Positions 24,367 through 59,718 of a DNA stretch of 64,000 nucleotides are shown here, one piece after another. The DNA is from Eubacterium sp. AF16-48 (GTDB lineage: Bacteria; Bacillota; Clostridia; Lachnospirales; Lachnospiraceae), in assembly GCF_003479405.1 (NCBI RefSeq), contig NZ_QUHB01000002.1:403981-467980 (forward strand). Direction: 5' to 3'. The notes under the pieces were generated by a model. The model did no database searches and was not told where the DNA came from. It was given only the letters and a program-made list of their open reading frames with translations. The position numbers were made by a program, and so were the translations under genes. The number at the start of each line of letters is the position of its first letter. Position 1 is the stretch's first letter.

Positions 24367-26598
24367 ATGAAGTTTGCAAATATTATAATTGATATTTCTC
24401 ACGAAAAGTTAGACCATCCTTTTGGATATATAATACCTGAAGAATTGGAGAACCGCATTTTTGCAGGCACAGGGGTAATGATACCCTTTGGCAGGGGAAA
24501 CAGACAGATAAAGGGATATGTTATTGAGGTAACTGATAAACCATCCTTTGATGTAAGCAAAATGAAAAAAATATCCTCTGTTATTGAAGGTGCAGTGGAA
24601 GTGGAAAGCATGCTTATTAAACTGGCATGGTGGATAAAAGAAAACTACGGTTCAACCATGAATCAGGCATTAAAAACCGTAATACCTGTAAAAAACAAAG
24701 TCAGGGCAAAGGAAAATAAAACCATTGTTCTTAATATGACTAAAGATGAAGCATTAGAGAAGATTGAACAATACACCAAAAAACATGCTACAGCAAGAAT
24801 AAGACTTCTTAAGGAATTAATTGACAATGATAATATTTCTAGGAGGCTTGTAACAGATAAATTAAATATATCTGACAGTACGATAAAATCCATGGAAATC
24901 CAGGGAGATATTGTTGTTAATGCGGATATTGATTATAGAAATCCCGTTACTGTTACCAGTCAGCCGGAGTATGACATTGTTCTTAATAATGAACAAAGAT
25001 GTGTTGCGGAAGAAATAAAAAAAACCATGAATTTTAAACCGTCTAAGTTCCCTAATGTTCATCTGATTCATGGAATTACAGGAAGCGGAAAGACGGAAGT
25101 ATATATGGATTTAATTGACTATACCATTAAAAATGGAAAGTCTGCCATTGTACTTATTCCGGAAATTGCCCTTACCTATCAGACAGTTATGAGATTTACA
25201 AGGCGTTTTAAGGAAAAGGTGTCCATTGTAAATTCCAGAATGTCTGCAGGAGAGAAGTACGACCAGTTTGAAAGGGCTAAGAAGGGTGAAATCAGCATAA
25301 TGATTGGCCCCAGGTCAGCACTTTTTACACCTTTTAAAAATTTGGGACTTATTGTAATAGATGAAGAGCATGAAAGTGCATATAAAAGCGAGTCGGTGCC
25401 TAAGTATCATGCCATAGAAGTAGCACAAAAAAGAGGTGTGGATACGGGAGCTGCCATTGTTTTGGGTTCAGCCACACCGTCTCTTGAGTCATATTACCGG
25501 GCAAAAAAAGGCATATATAAGTTTCATAAACTTACATCAAGGGAAAAAGGAAATCTTCCCACAGTTTCAATTGTGGATTTAAGGGAAGAGTTAAAAAATG
25601 ATAATAAGTCTATATTTAGTGTAAAATTAAGTGAATTAATTAAAGACAGATTACAGAAAAAACAGCAGACAATGCTGTTTATTAACAGAAGAGGATATGC
25701 GGGATTTGTATCCTGCAGGGATTGTGGTGAGGCAATTAAATGTCCCCACTGTGATGTTACCTTAAAACTTCACACCAATAGAAAATTAGTATGTCATTAT
25801 TGTGGACACACGGAAATGATGCCGGGATTGTGTCCGGGATGTGGCTCTAAAAATATTGGTGGCTTTGGAATAGGAACCCAGCAGATAGAACTGGCAGTCA
25901 AGAAAATGTTCCCCACAGCAAAAGTTCTTAGAATGGATGCAGATACCACATCTAAAAAAGGAAGCCATGACAGAATACTTTCAGCTTTTGCCAATCACGA
26001 AGCAGATATACTAGTGGGAACCCAGATGATTGTTAAGGGGCATGATTTCCCTAACGTAACCTTAGTGGGAGTTTTAGCAGCAGATATGTCTTTATATGCA
26101 TCTGATTACAGGGCAGCAGAGAGAACCTTCCAGCTTTTATGTCAGGCGGCAGGAAGAGCCGGAAGAGGAGTAAGCTTAGGAGATGTGGTTATTCAGACAT
26201 ATTCCCCGGATAATTATAGTATAAAAGCTGCAAGTCATCAGGACTATGAGGAGTTTTATCAGGAGGAAATAGCCTACCGCAAGCTTATGTCATATCCTCC
26301 GGTGGCAAATATGATTTCCGTATTTTTACAGGGAAAAGACCAAAAGGAATTAAACATTGCCACGGAATATATTACTGAAATCATAAAGAAGAAAAGAGAT
26401 GAACATTATAATAAGCTTATGATTATAGGCCCGGCAAAACCACCGGTTTCAAAGGTTAATGATGTTCATAGAAGAATAATATATTTAAAGGGAATAACAA
26501 GAAAAGAATTAATAGATTTAAAAGATAGTTTAGAAGATGTAATAAACTGTTCACAAAATTTCAAAAATATTAATGTACAATTTGATTTTAAAGTATAA
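24367..26598 (+). CDS. priA: Primosomal helicase PriA
   Basis: 743 residues, full length. It restarts stalled replication forks. An N-terminal DNA-binding domain (about 1-110) is followed by a DEAH-type helicase core with Walker A HGITGSGKTEVY near residue 235, Walker B VIDEEHESAYK and GSATPSLES, then eight zinc-binding Cys (CRDCGEAIKCPHC and CHYCG, CPGCG) inserted in the second helicase lobe, and QAAGRAGRG (motif VI). AAAGGAGG is 5 bases before the ATG. Confidence 0.97.
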   Translation: MKFANIIIDISHEKLDHPFGYIIPEELENRIFAGTGVMIPFGRGNRQIKGYVIEVTDKPSFDVSKMKKISSVIEGAVEVESMLIKLAWWIKENYGSTMNQALKTVIPVKNKVRAKENKTIVLNMTKDEALEKIEQYTKKHATARIRLLKELIDNDNISRRLVTDKLNISDSTIKSMEIQGDIVVNADIDYRNPVTVTSQPEYDIVLNNEQRCVAEEIKKTMNFKPSKFPNVHLIHGITGSGKTEVYMDLIDYTIKNGKSAIVLIPEIALTYQTVMRFTRRFKEKVSIVNSRMSAGEKYDQFERAKKGEISIMIGPRSALFTPFKNLGLIVIDEEHESAYKSESVPKYHAIEVAQKRGVDTGAAIVLGSATPSLESYYRAKKGIYKFHKLTSREKGNLPTVSIVDLREELKNDNKSIFSVKLSELIKDRLQKKQQTMLFINRRGYAGFVSCRDCGEAIKCPHCDVTLKLHTNRKLVCHYCGHTEMMPGLCPGCGSKNIGGFGIGTQQIELAVKKMFPTAKVLRMDADTTSKKGSHDRILSAFANHEADILVGTQMIVKGHDFPNVTLVGVLAADMSLYASDYRAAERTFQLLCQAAGRAGRGVSLGDVVIQTYSPDNYSIKAASHQDYEEFYQEEIAYRKLMSYPPVANMISVFLQGKDQKELNIATEYITEIIKKKRDEHYNKLMIIGPAKPPVSKVNDVHRRIIYLKGITRKELIDLKDSLEDVINCSQNFKNINVQFDFKV

Positions 26599-26625
26599 AC
26601 TGACAATTTATTTAAGGAGAAGAAA

Positions 26626-27123
26626 ATGGCAATACGAAATATAAGAGAATTAGGAGAACCATGTCTTAGAAAGGTATGCAAGCCGGTTAAGGAAATGAAT
26701 TCCCGTACTAAGATATTAATTGAAGATATGTTTGATACCATGTATGAGGCAAATGGTGTAGGCTTAGCGGCACCACAGGTGGGAATTTTAAAGAGAATAT
26801 TTGTTGTGGACTGTGGAGATGAGGAGGGAAACAGCGTTCCATATGTTTTTATTAATCCTGAAATAATAGACAGAGATGGCATTCAGGCAGGATATGAAGG
26901 ATGCTTGAGCGTTCCTGGAAAATCAGGAATGGTTACAAGAGCTAATAATGTAAAGGTAAAAGCCTTAGACGAAAACATGGAAGAATTTGAATTAGAGGCA
27001 GAAGGATTGTTAGCCAGATGCATACTTCATGAAAATGATCACTTAGATGGAGTTATGTATGTAGATAAGGTGGAAGGAAAATTATACGACAACGAAGAGT
27101 TGTACGAAAATAATGAAGAATAG
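26626..27123 (+). CDS. def: Peptide deformylase
   Basis: 165 residues. It removes the formyl group from nascent N-termini. The three motifs are present: GVGLAAPQVG (motif 1), EGCLSVPG with the metal Cys (motif 2) and HENDHLDGV with the two metal His and catalytic Glu (motif 3). The ribosome site AAGGAG lies 5 bases before the ATG. It is paired with fmt, 15 bases downstream, which adds the formyl group that Def removes. Confidence 0.97.
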   Translation: MAIRNIRELGEPCLRKVCKPVKEMNSRTKILIEDMFDTMYEANGVGLAAPQVGILKRIFVVDCGDEEGNSVPYVFINPEIIDRDGIQAGYEGCLSVPGKSGMVTRANNVKVKALDENMEEFELEAEGLLARCILHENDHLDGVMYVDKVEGKLYDNEELYENNEE

Positions 27124-27138
27124 TCAGGGGGTGAATAC

Positions 27139-28065
27139 ATGAAAGTAGTATTTATGGGAACACCGGATTTTTCCGTACCTGCATTAAAGGCTATAGCCGG
27201 TAAGCATGATGTAACGGCAGTTGTTACCCAGCAGGACAGACCAAAGGGAAGAGGTCACAAAATGCAGTTTACTCCTGTAAAGGAAACGGCAGTGGAGCTT
27301 AATATTCCGGTATATCAGCCACGAAAGGTAAAAGATAAGGAGTTTGTGGAAATTTTAAGAAATCTAAAGCCTGATGTAATTGTGGTGATTGCGTTTGGAC
27401 AGATTTTGTCGAAAGAAATTCTCGATTTGCCAAAATACGGATGCGTTAATGTGCATGCATCGCTTTTACCTAAGTACCGTGGAGCTGCACCTATACAGTG
27501 GGCAGTTATTGATGGTGAAGAGTATTCAGGAGTTACCACAATGTATATGGCAGAAGGTCTTGATACAGGTGACATTATAGATAAAAGTGTAGTTAAATTA
27601 AGAGATGACGAAACAGGAGGGAGCCTGTTTGATGCCTTGTCTCAAGAGGGGGCAAAGCTTATAATAGAAACTCTTGACAAGTTAGAACAAGGCACAGCAG
27701 AAAGAACTAAGCAGGATGATTCCTTATCCACCTATGCGGGAAAAATAACAAAAGAACTGGGAAATATTGATTTTTCAAAGCCTGCAGTGGAAATTGAACG
27801 TTTAATAAGAGGATTAAATCCATGGCCAAGTGCGTATACAACCCTTAATGGAAAAACTCTTAAAATCTGGAAGGCAAAGGTAGAGGAAGGTTCTACAGAT
27901 AAAGCTCCGGGAGAAATAATGGAAGTTTCAAAAAGGGGCATTAAGGTGGCAACAGGAGAAAATTTTCTGATTTTACAGGAAATACAGCTGGAAGGAAAGA
28001 AGAGAATGGAAGTTTCTGCATTTTTAAACGGATATGAAATAAATGCACACCATTTGGGAGATTAA
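27139..28065 (+). CDS. fmt: Methionyl-tRNA formyltransferase
   Basis: 308 residues. It formylates initiator Met-tRNA with 10-formyl-THF. The Rossmann-like half opens MKVVFMGTPDFSVPALKAI and carries the catalytic VNVHASLLPKYRGAAPIQWA and GVTTMYMAEGLDTGD; the C-terminal OB fold contains RGLNPWPSAYT. GGGGGTG precedes the ATG. It lies in the def-fmt-yugP-rsmB-rlmN-stp-prkC-rsgA-rpe order well known in Firmicutes. Confidence 0.97.
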   Translation: MKVVFMGTPDFSVPALKAIAGKHDVTAVVTQQDRPKGRGHKMQFTPVKETAVELNIPVYQPRKVKDKEFVEILRNLKPDVIVVIAFGQILSKEILDLPKYGCVNVHASLLPKYRGAAPIQWAVIDGEEYSGVTTMYMAEGLDTGDIIDKSVVKLRDDETGGSLFDALSQEGAKLIIETLDKLEQGTAERTKQDDSLSTYAGKITKELGNIDFSKPAVEIERLIRGLNPWPSAYTTLNGKTLKIWKAKVEEGSTDKAPGEIMEVSKRGIKVATGENFLILQEIQLEGKKRMEVSAFLNGYEINAHHLGD

Positions 28066-28084
28066 TATACTAGGAGGTGTTTTT

Positions 28085-28792
28085 ATGCTATATGGATTTT
28101 ATTTTGACCCAACATATATTTTGATTATTATAGGTATGGTGATTTGCATGGCAGCTTCAGCACATGTAAACTCAACCTTTAAAAAGTATTCAAGATACAG
28201 AAGTAATTCAGGACTTACGGGGGCACAGGCAGCAGCTAAAATATTGGAATCTCAGGGAATATATGATGTACAGATAAGACATGTTTCAGGGGATTTAACA
28301 GATAACTATAATCCTTCAAATAAGGTACTTAGTCTGTCAGATGCTACTTATAACAGCACCAGTGTGGCAGCCATAGGTGTTGCAGCTCATGAATGTGGTC
28401 ATGCAATGCAGCATCAGAAGGGATATACACCTATTGCAGTGAGAAATGCATTGGTTCCTTTTGCAAACTGGGGAGCAAGATTGTCCTGGGTACTTATAAT
28501 TGCAGGATTAATATTCTTTGGACAGGGAACAGGACAGACAATAATAAATATCGGTATTTTTGCCTTTTCATTGGCAGTAATATTTCAGATAGTAACTCTT
28601 CCTGTAGAGTTTAATGCATCAGGAAGAGCCATAAAAGTATTAGAAAGTACAGGCATATTTGGAAGTCAGGAGCTTAAATATACAAGGAAAGTATTAGGTG
28701 CGGCAGCCCTTACTTATGTGGCAGCGGTAGCATCATCAATTTTACAGCTCTTAAGACTTATAATACTGTTTGGAGGAAGAAAAGATGACTAA
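28085..28792 (+). CDS. yugP: YugP-type neutral zinc metallopeptidase (membrane)
   Basis: 235 residues from ATG 28085, chosen because AGGAGG lies 7 bases before it; a longer frame from 28043 would overlap fmt and lacks a ribosome site. One N-terminal membrane helix (about 8-27), then the zinc motif HECGH at residues 102-106 in VAAHECGHAMQHQ, two more membrane helices (about 125-175), VTLPVEFNASGRAI and a last hydrophobic tail. This matches the Zn_peptidase_2/YugP family, membrane proteases of little-studied function. It overlaps rsmB by 8 bases. Confidence 0.92.
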   Translation: MLYGFYFDPTYILIIIGMVICMAASAHVNSTFKKYSRYRSNSGLTGAQAAAKILESQGIYDVQIRHVSGDLTDNYNPSNKVLSLSDATYNSTSVAAIGVAAHECGHAMQHQKGYTPIAVRNALVPFANWGARLSWVLIIAGLIFFGQGTGQTIINIGIFAFSLAVIFQIVTLPVEFNASGRAIKVLESTGIFGSQELKYTRKVLGAAALTYVAAVASSILQLLRLIILFGGRKDD

Positions 28793-30128
28793 AAATGTCT
28801 CATGTAATGTTAATTCAAGAAATGTGGTATTAACAATGCTTGAAAAAACTGAAAATGGTGAAAAAAGTCATATAGTGCTTAAAAATACACTAGACGGGTA
28901 TCAGGACATTGATAAACAGACAAGAGCATTTATTACCAGATTATTTCAGGGAACATTAGAGAGACAAATTGAACTTGATTATATTATAAACATTTATTCA
29001 AAAACACCTGTTAAAAAAATGAAGCCGGTTATAAGAAATATACTTAGACTTTCTGTTTATCAGTTAAAGTATATGAAATCAGTTCCGGTTTCGGCAGTGT
29101 GTAATGAAGCGGTAAAGTTAGTGGCAAAAAGAAAATTTTCGGGACTTAAGGGCTTTGTAAACGGAGTTCTTAGAAATATTGCAAGAAATATAGAGGATAT
29201 TAAATATCCTGTTAATGAGGAAAAAAAACTTTCAGTGAATTATTCCATGCCGGAATGGATAATTAAATTATGGATACAGGAATATGGCATTAATAAAACA
29301 AAGGAAATGCTTACCTCCATATATTCTGACAGAAGAACCACAGTAAGGGTAAACACCGGCAGGGCTACAGTGGAAGAAGTAATAAGCATCTTAGAAAACG
29401 GTGGTGTTAAGGTGGAAAAAAGCCCACTATATGACAAGGCATTATTAATTTGGGGTTACGATAATTTAAACAGCTTAGAGGCTTTTTCAAAGGGAATGAT
29501 TACAGTTCAGGATTTAAGCTCCATGATGGCGGGACTTAGTGCCAATCCTAAAAAAGGTGATTACATTATAGATGTATGTGCAGCTCCCGGTGGAAAAACC
29601 ATGCATATGGCTGATATTATGGGGCAGACAGGAATGGTTGACTCAAGGGATTTAACACCATATAAAATTAGCCTGATAAATGAAAATATATCACGGATGG
29701 GTTATAAAAATATTAAAACAACCGTGATGGATGCAACAGTCTTAGATGAAAAATCCATAGAAGCTGCTGATGTGGTAATGGCGGATTTGCCCTGCTCAGG
29801 TCTTGGAGTTATGGGAAAGAAAAATGACATAAAATACAATGTGTCATTAGCACAAATAAAGGAACTTGTTAAATTACAGAGACAGATTTTGCAGGTGTCA
29901 TGTAAATATTTAAAAAAAGGCGGGACACTGGTTTTTTCGACCTGTACCGTTAATAAATATGAAAATGATGAAAATGTAAGGTGGATAACGGAAAATCTCC
30001 CCCTTACCCCGGTTTCTCTTGCAGGCATTTTACCAAAGCAACTGGGCGGAGATAAGGGTTATGTACAAATTTATCCGGGAGAATATGGTATGGATGGTTT
30101 TTTCGTATCAGCATTTAAGAAAATATGA
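28785..30128 (+). CDS. rsmB: 16S rRNA m5C967 methyltransferase RsmB
   Basis: 447 residues. An N-terminal NusB-like RNA-binding domain (about 10-145) precedes the Fmu/NOL1/NOP2 catalytic domain, with the SAM loop DVCAAPGGKTMHMA near residue 262, the DLPCSGLG site with the first catalytic Cys and FSTCTVN with the second. ATG 28785 follows GGAGGAAG. The stop overlaps the rlmN start (ATGA), showing coupled translation of two rRNA-modifying enzymes. Confidence 0.94.
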   Translation: MTKNVSCNVNSRNVVLTMLEKTENGEKSHIVLKNTLDGYQDIDKQTRAFITRLFQGTLERQIELDYIINIYSKTPVKKMKPVIRNILRLSVYQLKYMKSVPVSAVCNEAVKLVAKRKFSGLKGFVNGVLRNIARNIEDIKYPVNEEKKLSVNYSMPEWIIKLWIQEYGINKTKEMLTSIYSDRRTTVRVNTGRATVEEVISILENGGVKVEKSPLYDKALLIWGYDNLNSLEAFSKGMITVQDLSSMMAGLSANPKKGDYIIDVCAAPGGKTMHMADIMGQTGMVDSRDLTPYKISLINENISRMGYKNIKTTVMDATVLDEKSIEAADVVMADLPCSGLGVMGKKNDIKYNVSLAQIKELVKLQRQILQVSCKYLKKGGTLVFSTCTVNKYENDENVRWITENLPLTPVSLAGILPKQLGGDKGYVQIYPGEYGMDGFFVSAFKKI

Positions 30129-31177
30129 GTGAATTAAAAGATATTAAGTCATATAATTTAAAAGAATTAAAAGAAGAATTAACGAAAATGGGTGAAAAGC
30201 CCTTTCGGGCAGGTCAGATATACAGATGGCTTCACGTGGAAACCGTAAGAAGCTTTGATGAAATGACTAATATTTCCAAAAGCTTAAGGGAGAAGTTAAG
30301 CAGGGAATATGAAATAAGAAATGTAAATCAGATACAGGTTTTAGTTTCAAAAATTGACGGCACAAGAAAATACATATCAGAAATAAAAGGCGGTTCTGTT
30401 ATTGAAAGTGTTCTGATGCGTTATCATCATGGCAATTCAGTATGTATATCTACCCAGTAAGGATGCCGTATGGGATGTAAGTTTTGTGCTTCAACCCTTA
30501 AGGGATTAGACAGAAACCTGACTCCGTCAGAGATGCTTGATGAAATTTATTCCATTGAAAGAGACATAAATGAAAAGGTATCTAACATTGTTTTAATGGG
30601 CAGTGGTGAGCCTTTGGATAATTTTGATAATGTAACAAAATTTATTGAAATGATTACAGACGAAAACGGAAAGAATTTAAGTCAGAGAAACATAACTCTT
30701 TCAACCTGTGGAATAGTGCCTAACATAAAACGTTTAGCAGATATGCATCCGCAGATTACATTGGCACTTTCCCTTCATGCATCAGATGATGAAACAAGAA
30801 AGAAGTTAATGCCTATAGCATACAAATATTCAATAAATGAAATTTTAGATGCCTGCGTTTATTACTTTAACAAAACTAAAAGAAGAATTACTTTTGAGTA
30901 TAGTTTAGTTGCAGGAGTAAATGACAATACGGAGGAAGCCCTTAAACTGGTAGGTCTTGTTAAGGGAATAAACTGCCACGTTAATCTTATTCCTGTAAAT
31001 CCCATTAAAGAAAGGAAAATGACCCAGCCGGATAAAGCTGCGGTACAACATTTTAAATCAATACTTGAAAAAAATAAGATAAATGTTACTATAAGAAGAG
31101 AAATGGGCAGAGACATTAACGGAGCGTGCGGACAGCTTAGAAATGAGGTTATGTCCGGAAAAATATTAAAGGATTAG
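30125..31177 (+). pseudogene. rlmN: 23S rRNA m2A2503 / tRNA m2A37 methyltransferase RlmN, interrupted by one in-frame TAA
   Basis: Read through, this is a full-length radical SAM methyltransferase of about 350 residues. The first 111 codons hold the N-terminal domain (KPFRAGQIYRWL) and run to VCISTQ, then TAA at 30458-30460 replaces the Val of the family pattern SQVGC; the same frame continues GCRMGCKFCAST with the CxxxCxxC iron-sulfur motif. The first conserved Cys (methyl carrier, seven residues before the cluster), the cluster triad and the second catalytic Cys (NGACGQL) are all present. A restart at ATG 30470 would omit the first cluster Cys. A Val codon needs two changes to become TAA. 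Either a recent pseudogene, read-through, or a base-call error. Loss of RlmN is known to alter linezolid/tiamulin sensitivity in other bacteria. Confidence 0.85.
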
Positions 31178-31192
31178 AAGGGAGGAAAATCA

Positions 31193-31948
31193 TTGGCAGA
31201 TATTAAAATTAATGCATTTGGAAAAACTGATGTAGGTTTAATGAGAACTATTAATCAGGATAGTATTTTTGTATCTACACAACCAATAGGAAAGCTCCCT
31301 AACCTTTTTATTGTTGCAGATGGTATGGGGGGGCATAAGGCAGGAGACGTGGCTTCAAGGGAAGCCATTGAAAGATTTGTAAAATATGCCTGCACTACCC
31401 ATATGTCAGATCCTGCCAACATATTAGATGCGGGAATTATTTCAGTAAATAAAGATATATTTGATATGGCAAATTCCAACAGAGATTACAGTGGTATGGG
31501 AACCACCTTTGTTGCAGCCTCATTAGTTGAGAATCATGTTTATATTGCAAATGTTGGAGACAGCAGGCTCTATTTGATAGGAAGAGACATAAGGCAGATT
31601 ACAAGAGACCATTCACTGGTGGAAGATATGGTTAGAATGGGTGTTTTAGAAAGAGAAGAAGCAAGAACTCATTACAAGAAAAATGTTATTACCAAAGCTA
31701 TAGGAGTGGCAGATGACAAAACATCCACTCCGGACATTTTTGAAATAGAAGTGGAAAATGGTGACAAGTTGCTTTTATGTTCAGACGGACTTACAAATAT
31801 GGTGGAGGACTATGACATAAAGAAAATTGTAAAAGATAATGACAGCATTGAGGATGCAGTCCGTGAACTGATTAAACAGGCAAATGAGAACGGCGGAAAA
31901 GATAATATATCAGCGATTCTGATAGAACCTGAAATTGGCGAGGAGTAG
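31193..31948 (+). CDS. stp: PP2C-type Ser/Thr phosphatase Stp/PrpC
   Basis: 251 residues from a TTG preceded by GGGAGG. Metal-binding motifs of PP2C enzymes are visible: TDVGLMRTINQDS, ADGMGGHKAGDVAS, SGMGTTFVAA, ANVGDSRLYL, LCSDGLTNMVED and GKDNISAIL. It reverses phosphorylation by the PrkC kinase encoded 4 bases downstream. The pair is conserved across Firmicutes and acts on cell-wall, translation and dormancy proteins (family knowledge). Confidence 0.95.
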   Translation: MADIKINAFGKTDVGLMRTINQDSIFVSTQPIGKLPNLFIVADGMGGHKAGDVASREAIERFVKYACTTHMSDPANILDAGIISVNKDIFDMANSNRDYSGMGTTFVAASLVENHVYIANVGDSRLYLIGRDIRQITRDHSLVEDMVRMGVLEREEARTHYKKNVITKAIGVADDKTSTPDIFEIEVENGDKLLLCSDGLTNMVEDYDIKKIVKDNDSIEDAVRELIKQANENGGKDNISAILIEPEIGEE

Positions 31949-31951
31949 AGC

Positions 31952-33961
31952 ATGTTAGAAAAAGGTAATTTTATTAATAACCGTTATGAAATTATAGGCA
32001 GAGTAGGTGCAGGCGGTATGTCTGATGTTTACAAAGCCAAGGATCATAAATTAAATAGAAATGTAGCTATAAAAGTATTAAAAAAGGAATACAGCAAAGA
32101 TAAGAATTTTGTATCAAAATTCAGGGTAGAGGCCCAGTCTGCGGCAAGTCTTATTCACCCAAATATTGTAAATGTATATGATGTAGGTGAAGACAACGGA
32201 CTATATTACATAGTTATGGAATTAATAGAGGGAATTACCCTTAAAAGTTATATACAGAAGAAAGGCAGACTTTCTGCAAGGGAAACCATAAGCATTGCCA
32301 TTCAGATTGCCAATGGAATAGAGTGTGCCCACAATAATCAGATTGTTCACAGGGATATTAAACCTCAGAATATAATGATTTCAAGAGAGGGAAAGGTTAA
32401 GGTTACGGATTTTGGTATTGCAAGGGCTGCAAGTTCCAATACCATTAACGGAAATGCAATGGGTTCAGTTCATTACATTTCACCGGAACAGGCAGGAGGA
32501 AAGTACGTTGACGAAAAAAGCGATATTTATTCTCTTGGAATAACAATGTTTGAAATGATTACAGGCAAGGTTCCTTTTGATGGAGAATCTACTGTTACCA
32601 TTGCCTTAAAACACATTCAGAATTCAGTGCCAAGTATCAGGGAATATATTCCTCAGGCACCGGTAAGCATTGAAAAAATTATTTTAAAATGTACACAAAA
32701 TAAATCAGACAAGAGATATCCGAAAATTTCTCTTCTTATAGCAGATTTAAAGAGGGCTCTTACGGAACCGGATGTGGATTTTGTACAGATTGATGCTACA
32801 AGACCTATAGGAACCACAGTTATGATTACTGATGAGGAGATTAATCAGATAAGAAAAGGAGCCGGAAAAACAAGCCCGGAGAAACCGGAAGAGGACGTGG
32901 ATGATATTGATGCCATGTCGCCTAAAATGGACAAAGCCGTAACTATAGGTGGTGTAATAGCAGGTATTGCGGCATTAATGGTAGTGGCTGTTATTTTGAC
33001 GGTGGTATTAAGTGATAACAGCATAAAGCTTCCAAAGGATATGTCAGGAGATGAAATCCAGACTATTGACCCAAGAAAGACGGTTGTGCCAAAGGTTCTT
33101 GGTATGTCTTCTGATGAAGCTGAAAAAGCTCTTAATGAAAAGAGTCTTGGATTTGAGTATGACTCAAATTATGTATATAGTGATGTTTATGCGGCAGACC
33201 AGATTGTTAATCAGTCTGAGGCACCGGGCAGTGTAGTTAATAAAAATATAACTGTTAAGCTTATTGTCAGCAAAGGTCCTGAAAGAATACAGGTTCCTGC
33301 AGGTATAAGTAGATCTGATTTAGACAGTGCCATTTCTAAATTAGACAGTGTAGGATTAAAATATGAAATAACATACGAATTTAGTGGAAATACCATTGGT
33401 ACTGTTATTTCCTGTTCACCAACAGAAAATGCATCTGTTAATAAGAAAGATATTGTTAAGTTGGTAGTTAGCCGTGGAAGTCAGGAAAGTGAAGAAAAAA
33501 CGGCAACAGTTCCAAGTCTTGTTAATATGAAACTGGCAAAAGCACAGCAGAAAATATCATCTAGTGGATTTGAAATTGGAAATGTAAGTGAAGAATATAG
33601 CGACACTGTAAAGAAAGGTTATGTAATAAGGCAGACTGTTAAGTCAGGTCATCAGATGCCTCTTGGTGGAACCATAGGTCTTGTGGTAAGTAAAGGCTCG
33701 GAAGATGCACCGAAATATACAGGAAGCTATACTTTCGCCCTGGAGGATTTACATGATGCAGACGGAAATCCTATAACTGAAGGTGTTGTTAATGTGGCAC
33801 TTGACGGTGTATTACAAAAGGTTGATCCTAAGTATGCAGATGTTTCAACGTGGCCTGGAGATTACACAATAGAGCTTACAGGAGATAAGAAGGGCAAGGC
33901 TACCATTGAACTTATGGTAAACGGTCAGGTTATTCATACCGGAACAGTTAAGTTAAAATAA
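31952..33961 (+). CDS. prkC: PASTA Ser/Thr protein kinase PrkC
   Basis: 669 residues. Cytoplasmic kinase domain (1-270): glycine loop GRVGAGGMSDVYKA, AIKVLKKEY, HRDIKPQNIM, DFGIARA, and SVHYISPEQAGG. One membrane helix (about 332-356), then three PASTA modules outside (about 370-440, 440-510, 515-585), which in the family bind muropeptides and lipid II, and a further beta-rich tail (about 590-669) that is not a PASTA repeat. It follows stp with 3 bases between. Terminator-like hairpin at 33974-34005 follows. Confidence 0.95.
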   Translation: MLEKGNFINNRYEIIGRVGAGGMSDVYKAKDHKLNRNVAIKVLKKEYSKDKNFVSKFRVEAQSAASLIHPNIVNVYDVGEDNGLYYIVMELIEGITLKSYIQKKGRLSARETISIAIQIANGIECAHNNQIVHRDIKPQNIMISREGKVKVTDFGIARAASSNTINGNAMGSVHYISPEQAGGKYVDEKSDIYSLGITMFEMITGKVPFDGESTVTIALKHIQNSVPSIREYIPQAPVSIEKIILKCTQNKSDKRYPKISLLIADLKRALTEPDVDFVQIDATRPIGTTVMITDEEINQIRKGAGKTSPEKPEEDVDDIDAMSPKMDKAVTIGGVIAGIAALMVVAVILTVVLSDNSIKLPKDMSGDEIQTIDPRKTVVPKVLGMSSDEAEKALNEKSLGFEYDSNYVYSDVYAADQIVNQSEAPGSVVNKNITVKLIVSKGPERIQVPAGISRSDLDSAISKLDSVGLKYEITYEFSGNTIGTVISCSPTENASVNKKDIVKLVVSRGSQESEEKTATVPSLVNMKLAKAQQKISSSGFEIGNVSEEYSDTVKKGYVIRQTVKSGHQMPLGGTIGLVVSKGSEDAPKYTGSYTFALEDLHDADGNPITEGVVNVALDGVLQKVDPKYADVSTWPGDYTIELTGDKKGKATIELMVNGQVIHTGTVKLK

Positions 33962-50505: not shown

Positions 50506-50595
50506 CGGAGACGAAGGGATTCGAACCCTTGTACCAGAGTAAACTGATAAACTGATTTCGAGTCAGCCCCGTTACGGCCACTTCGGTACGTCTCC
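50506..50595 (-). tRNA. tRNA-Ser(CGA)
   Basis: Acceptor arms GGAGACG and CGTCTCC pair fully; the long variable arm is typical of class II tRNAs; the T arm has GGTTCGAATCC; the anticodon loop CTCGAAA gives anticodon CGA, decoding UCG. The discriminator is G, as in Ser tRNAs. CCA is not encoded. A T-run follows the tRNA 3' end. Confidence 0.95.
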
Positions 50596-59515: not shown

Positions 59516-59520
59516 ATAGT

Positions 59521-59695
59521 TACCTGAGATGCTCGTAGGTCCTGTATATTTTGAACCTACAGTTTGATTAAAGGGATTCCTATATCTCTAAGGGGATGAC
59601 ATGCCTCGTTATTTAGTGGACTTCAGAACTTTAGATGCGGTTGCCCACCTGGCAGTTGCTAGGACTCAAAACGCAGGAAGGGCATTTCGGGTATA
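59521..59695 (+). ncRNA. ssrS: 6S RNA (RNA polymerase-binding)
   Basis: About 175 nt. The two ends pair over 12 consecutive positions: TACCTGAGATGC (59521-59532) with GCATTTCGGGTA (59682-59693). The ends resemble those of the Escherichia coli RNA (CTGAGATG.. and ..GGCATCTCGG), and the overall shape (closing stem, internal bulges, open middle) is that of 6S RNA, which copies an open promoter and holds the housekeeping RNA polymerase. An inner hairpin GTAGGT/ACCTAC lies at 59534-59560. A consensus promoter precedes it and a strong terminator follows. Identification is by end pairing and context, not by a model search. Confidence 0.75.
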
Positions 59696-59718
59696 CATAA
59701 CAAACATAGGAAAAGCAG

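What the first reader, a model, noticed from the sequence alone, without database searches (positions are those of the whole stretch)
30440..30480. Single in-frame TAA splits rlmN exactly before its iron-sulfur motif
Seen: the frame is otherwise open for about 350 codons; TAA (30458-30460) sits where the family has Val in SQVGC, all catalytic Cys are intact, and no other stop or frameshift is present. A restart at ATG 30470 would lose the first cluster Cys (30464-30466), so two half proteins cannot work as they stand. GTA to TAA needs two base changes. Known: loss of RlmN lowers linezolid/tiamulin sensitivity in other bacteria. Inference: recent inactivation (perhaps selected by an antibiotic), stop read-through, or a sequence error.
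Basis: partly seen in the sequence, partly recalled or inferred. Interest (0 to 1): 0.7.

Follow-up and report, generated by a model that had tools for sequence, protein, structure and literature searches.

The report
rlmN gene cut by stop codon
A bacterium of a mostly gut-dwelling family carries a routine ribosome-methylating gene interrupted by one stop codon; it is most likely a recent private loss of a dispensable gene, or else a sequence error, and neither would be new biology.

Summary
The TAA at 30458-30460 is in the given sequence and is the only stop inside an otherwise open rlmN frame (30125-31177) in a syntenic position. The five Cys codons expected in RlmN are present. (1) Near-identical homologues (P0116-P0119, fragment P0001) carry Ser at residue 112, not Val, so 'two changes from GTA' is unsupported; the window's commonest Ser codon is one substitution from TAA. 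(2) The position is not special: 140 of 349 codons are one step from a stop. P0116 differs from the window only at residues 112 and 277, so any inactivation is recent. Of 397 family genomes (388 with a match) none shows an early in-frame stop in rlmN. Neither half can hold the three-Cys cluster, so loss of activity follows unless read-through or another copy helps. No reads or genome are held for the window. Antibiotic selection is untested. Loss of rlmN is a known kind of event.

The parts
30125..31177 (+). rlmN frame (350 codons, one internal stop), overlapping the stop of rsmB upstream (ATGA) and followed by a PP2C-type phosphatase gene (name by my reading)
30125..30460 (+). N-terminal ORF, 111 aa; RlmN N-terminal part, includes Cys107 (codon 30443-30445), ends at the premature stop
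30458..30460 (+). in-frame TAA at codon 112; Ser in near-identical homologues
30464..30487 (+). CX3CX2C cluster motif: Cys114 (30464-30466), Cys118 (30476-30478), Cys121 (30485-30487), all downstream of the stop
   Evidence: sequence read directly; P0116 aligned to a solved RlmN
30459..30463 (+). AAGGA, Shine-Dalgarno-like, 6 nt before ATG 30470; could allow re-initiation of the C-terminal half
   Evidence: sequence read directly; function inferred
30470..31177 (+). C-terminal ORF, 235 aa (radical-SAM domain without the first cluster Cys); C-terminal Cys335 codon 31127-31129 intact

Best explanation
A recent nonsense mutation, private as far as seen, in the housekeeping gene rlmN (m2A2503 of 23S rRNA and m2A37 of some tRNAs) of a Lachnospiraceae bacterium. 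Translation stops after residue 111. A restart at ATG 30470 is plausible because AAGGA lies 6 nt upstream, but that product lacks Cys114 and cannot bind the three-Cys [4Fe-4S] cluster, so the strain should lack RlmN activity unless another copy exists elsewhere in its genome. Shown: the stop, the intact rest of the frame, intact near-identical homologues, synteny. Inferred: the mutation is real in the organism, activity is lost, and it is tolerated because RlmN is dispensable. Not shown: any selective cause.
For: Single stop in an otherwise open 350-codon frame. P0116 differs from the window at only residues 112 and 277, P0118 at 7, P0117 at 8 and P0119 at 10 residues, the stop included, so no decay is visible. 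Ser at 112 in P0001 and P0116-P0119 and in 12 of 20 genus sites; TCA is the commonest Ser codon of the window (356 of 1093 Ser codons in 47 ORFs of at least 150 aa). Where it can be compared the window is clean: of 54 ORFs, 35 hit the fetched syntenic regions of two relatives, and 31 of these align over at least 85% in one piece, two of the 31 being the rlmN halves. Mixing of reads from other species cannot easily give this codon: its second base is T or C in 132 of 132 loci. Loss of rlmN is viable elsewhere: E. faecalis deletion, V. cholerae deletion and insertions, a frameshifted M. tuberculosis lineage.
Against: No reads, coverage or assembly are available; no genome is held for the window. 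None of 397 family genomes (388 with a match) has an early in-frame stop in rlmN, so the gene is normally kept. The motif is an assembly weak spot. The parental codon is unknown: DNA of P0116 could not be fetched, and only 1 of the 12 genus Ser codons is TCA (7 TCC, 4 TCG), from which TAA would need two changes. Loss may not be free of cost: PMC10117853 lists rlmN among three deletions that did affect competition without drug. Copies of rlmN or cfr elsewhere in the genome are unknown; the window holds no second one.
Confidence: 0.62

Rival explanations
1. Consensus or assembly error: the organism has an intact rlmN and the TAA arose in assembly or polishing at the conserved Fe-S motif.
For: The motif is a repeated break point in these data: genome G041 has 164 N there with the same 24 bases on both sides; G213 lacks one base at codons 112-113; in G417 the contig holding rlmN begins in codon 112. 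Among 115 database fragments found with the N half, 10 carry adapter-like tails and several look chimaeric by eye. No protein listed ends at the same place.
Against: Those errors are gaps, indels or chimaeras, not substitutions; both flanks of the stop match one intact homologue; of the window ORFs that could be compared, none but rlmN is visibly broken (19 of 54 had no hit and were not tested); no relative has A at the second codon position (132 of 132).
Confidence: 0.3
2. Stop read-through (or a suppressor tRNA) yields enough full-length RlmN.
For: The frame downstream is intact. A table passage in PMC10117853 links rlmN to UAG read-through (passage cut off there), so reduced RlmN might itself alter termination.
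Against: TAA is the usual stop of this window (36 of 47 ORFs of at least 150 aa), so a general suppressor is implausible. None of 132 loci keeps a stop here, unlike a programmed site. An intact downstream frame is equally expected of a very young mutation.
Confidence: 0.05
3. Loss of rlmN is recurrent in this species, perhaps favoured by a ribosome-targeting antibiotic.
For: Two other near-identical database fragments are disrupted in other ways: P0002 departs after residue 109, P0009 after residue 87.
Against: Their longest contigs are 953 and 1372 bases and they may be artefacts, like P0001 with its adapter-like tail. The intact form dominates by cluster size (P0116, 115 member sequences, against 9 and 1), though members of a cluster could not be inspected. 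No drug exposure is known.
Confidence: 0.03

Closest known systems
RlmN (TIGR00048), dual-specificity 23S rRNA/tRNA m2A methyltransferase
   Same: Sequence, place after rsmB, positions of Cys107, CX3CX2C and Cys335, best family model for both halves
   Different: Interrupted by TAA at codon 112; neither half reaches the family cut-off of 290 bits alone (101.1 and 281.9)
Natural rlmN loss-of-function alleles, e.g. the frameshift of M. tuberculosis lineage 4.10 (PMC13158455; abstract and passages seen)
   Same: A housekeeping rlmN broken in a natural lineage, predicted there to remove cofactor binding
   Different: There a frameshift common to a lineage, with MIC data; here a single nonsense codon in one sequence, no phenotype
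S. aureus rlmN codon-insertion allele (PMC2883592; passages seen)
   Same: rlmN altered in a natural isolate
   Different: In-frame insertion near the C-terminus with raised linezolid MIC; the authors proposed more methylation, not loss

Membership tests
RlmN | Match to the family model above its curated cut-off | tested here: not met
   N half 101.1 and C half 281.9 bits against a cut-off of 290; the frame is RlmN by homology, but no single ORF passes
RlmN | CX3CX2C cluster motif in one translated product | tested here: not met
   Codons for all three Cys present downstream of the stop; the restart at 30470 omits Cys114
RlmN | Two catalytic Cys (here 107 and 335) encoded | tested here: met
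   Both codons present, but in different halves; the same columns are Cys in the solved RlmN aligned; their catalytic role is recalled
RlmN | m2A2503 methylation activity | not testable with these tools
   needs RNA from the organism
Cfr (m8A2503) | Cfr model scores best | tested here: not met
   C half: Cfr models 181-185 bits against 281.9 for RlmN; N half 41-44 against 101.1
Recoded (programmed read-through) gene | Same stop conserved in relatives | tested here: not met
   Sense codon in 132 of 132 loci; no early stop in rlmN of 397 family genomes, 388 with a match

The most novel reading that the evidence does not exclude
The stop is leaky and self-tuned: low RlmN activity changes termination fidelity, raises read-through of its own UAA and so sets a low level of A2503/A37 methylation in this strain.
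Probability: 0.02. Interest if true: 0.65.

Novelty: new member of a known kind. Interest (0 to 1): 0.2.

Why it matters
If real, it is one more natural rlmN-null allele, in a Lachnospiraceae lineage, and would mark a strain whose ribosomes lack m2A2503. It also gives a warning for genome scans: the conserved Fe-S motif of RlmN is a place where assemblies break or err, so lesions reported exactly there need read support.

Tried and rejected
Alternative genetic code: rejected, TAA ends 36 of 47 window ORFs of at least 150 aa. Second rlmN/cfr copy in the window: none found by tblastn. Insertion at the site: nothing lies between the halves but the stop and the motif. G041 first looked like an insertion with a duplicated motif; it is a gap of 164 N. 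A set of N-terminally short RlmN proteins of a related species (P0187 and others) looked like a fixed loss; full-length versions at 97.0-99.6% identity exist (P0200, P0218, P0226). P0002 was considered as a second copy of the TAA allele; by my reading its shifted frame cannot tell TAA from a sense codon. Six family genomes whose rows show one stop were fetched: in all six it is the normal terminal stop (open frames of 345-351 codons holding the motif and the C-terminal Cys). Viral contigs held no relative. Protein searches: one search listed all 115 hits; one search listed 120 of 7998; (rsmB, to learn how often the species is sampled: top cluster 96% identical, 205 members) listed 120 of 7641; clusters could not be opened. 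Papers: the listings show no title on an rlmN nonsense allele in Lachnospiraceae (titles only); two searches were side searches, and PMC8752094 passages were not used. No structure was predicted.

Full report
What is there. The window holds priA, def, fmt, a membrane peptidase, rsmB, rlmN, a PP2C phosphatase and a Ser/Thr kinase in a row (ORFs from 24367 to 33961; names other than rlmN are by my reading of the translations and of the names given to homologues). rlmN starts at ATG 30125, overlapping the rsmB stop. The frame is open for 350 codons except for TAA at 30458-30460. Both halves match RlmN, and neither reaches the family cut-off alone. An intact homologue, P0116, aligns over its whole length in one piece at 99.4% identity.

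What stood at codon 112. Across the 132 loci fetched up to (some genomes twice) the residue is Val 82, Ala 33, Ser 13, Ile 4, and the second base is T or C in 132 of 132. In the nearest genus (23 genomes, 22 with a match, 20 of them with a locus; G417 and G418 gave only partial matches) it is Ser in 12 and Ala in 8. The nearest proteins, P0001 and P0116-P0119, all have Ser. The commonest Ser codon of this window (TCA, 356 of 1093) is a single substitution from TAA; the TCC and TCG codons of 11 of the 12 genus sites are two away.

How rare it is. P0116 was compared with 397 family genomes, drawn evenly from a larger group (388 with a match, the best 150 rows listed). The other 247 were looked at again (29 genomes, chosen for weak or no match; 73, 72 and 73 genomes). 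No rlmN among them has an early in-frame stop. Six rows show one stop (G122, G091, G252, G373, G403, G359); I fetched all six and it is the normal terminal stop each time. A weak 25% match in G207 also has one and is not taken as RlmN. Other lesions: G213, one base missing at codons 112-113; G037, in-frame loss of residues about 124-303; in the genus, G418, a frame change near residue 75. Nine of the 397 had no match in either search, which incomplete assemblies may explain; G332 gave only a short C-terminal piece, G041 has a scaffold gap, G121 is split over two contigs, and in G050 and G171 the fetched flank stops at the match on one side, as at a contig end.

Is it an error? The Fe-S motif is nearly the same DNA in many species, and assemblies in these data break there: G041 has 164 N between two copies of the same 24 bases (codons 111-118), G213 lacks one base, and the G417 contig with rlmN begins inside codon 112. 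Ten of 115 fragments found with the N half carry tails that I recognise from memory as adapter translations. Against an error: those are gaps, indels and chimaeras, while here one codon differs and both flanks match one protein. Of 54 window ORFs, 35 hit the fetched syntenic regions and 31 of these align over at least 85% in one piece (two of the 31 are the rlmN halves). The remaining four are cut by the edge of a fetched region (15261), 81% in one relative and split by a region edge in the other (47307), just under the threshold (49569), or a short partial match (5840). The 19 ORFs without a hit were not tested.

Function. The cluster Cys 114, 118 and 121 lie after the stop; the N half ends at 111; ATG 30470 starts after Cys114. 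AAGGA at 30459-30463 sits 6 nt before that ATG, so the C half may well be made, but with two of three cluster ligands. Loss of activity is therefore the expected result, an inference from the known chemistry of radical-SAM enzymes (recalled). Loss is tolerated elsewhere: in E. faecalis, deletion with a 16-fold higher chloramphenicol MIC and no effect on growth with the other antibiotics tested (PMC10336011, passages); in V. cholerae, insertions and a deletion with drug-dependent fitness effects, though rlmN is also named among three deletions with an effect on competition without drug (PMC10117853, passages); in M. tuberculosis, a frameshift in all isolates known to be of lineage 4.10, 5.3% of those assessed (PMC13158455, abstract and passages). 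PMC2883592 (passages) cites a knock-out as more susceptible to linezolid. LaMarre 2011 and Stojkovic et al. were seen only as reference entries. Whether any drug acted on this strain cannot be told.

Verdict. Best: a young nonsense allele, private as far as seen (0.62). Main rival: sequence error (0.30). Read-through (0.05) and recurrent loss in the species (0.03) are not excluded. Each of these readings belongs to a known kind.

Noticed in passing
L164 (reverse strand), genome G041: Gap of 164 N in rlmN with the same 24 bases of the Fe-S motif on both sides, an assembly misjoin at the conserved motif.
   Followed up: yes
L165, genome G213: One base missing at rlmN codons 112-113, shifting the frame exactly at the motif; real or artefact unknown.
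   Followed up: partly
L172, genome G037: rlmN frame of 192 codons, stop to stop, with an in-frame loss of residues about 124-303, starting beside the cluster motif.
   Followed up: partly
L170 (reverse strand), genome G303: RlmN frame of 462 codons with an in-frame insert of about 94 residues, low-complexity Gly/Ala/Ser/Lys-rich, before the MGCGEP stretch.
   Followed up: no
14 of 218 genomes (e.g. G112, G156): A second RlmN-like frame of 329-380 codons at 37-38% identity, two of them in G112 and in G156, similar in score between genomes; might be a Cfr- or MrmA-like type as in PMC11983580 (passages), not tested.
   Followed up: no
P0030, P0068, P0022, P0025, P0063, P0077: Short RlmN entries that end exactly before one of the three cluster Cys; P0063 is in 18 contigs. 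True stops and contig ends cannot be told apart.
   Followed up: no
P0002 and P0009: Near-identical RlmN fragments with other lesions: departures after residue 109 and after residue 87.
   Followed up: partly
L151, genome G418: The phosphatase gene next to rlmN shows one TAG inside its match, in the same genome whose rlmN changes frame near residue 75; possibly a low-quality assembly.
   Followed up: no
window 59518-59697 (+) and 50506-50595 (-): 6S RNA and one tRNA gene, the only Rfam matches at gathering score in the window.
   Followed up: no
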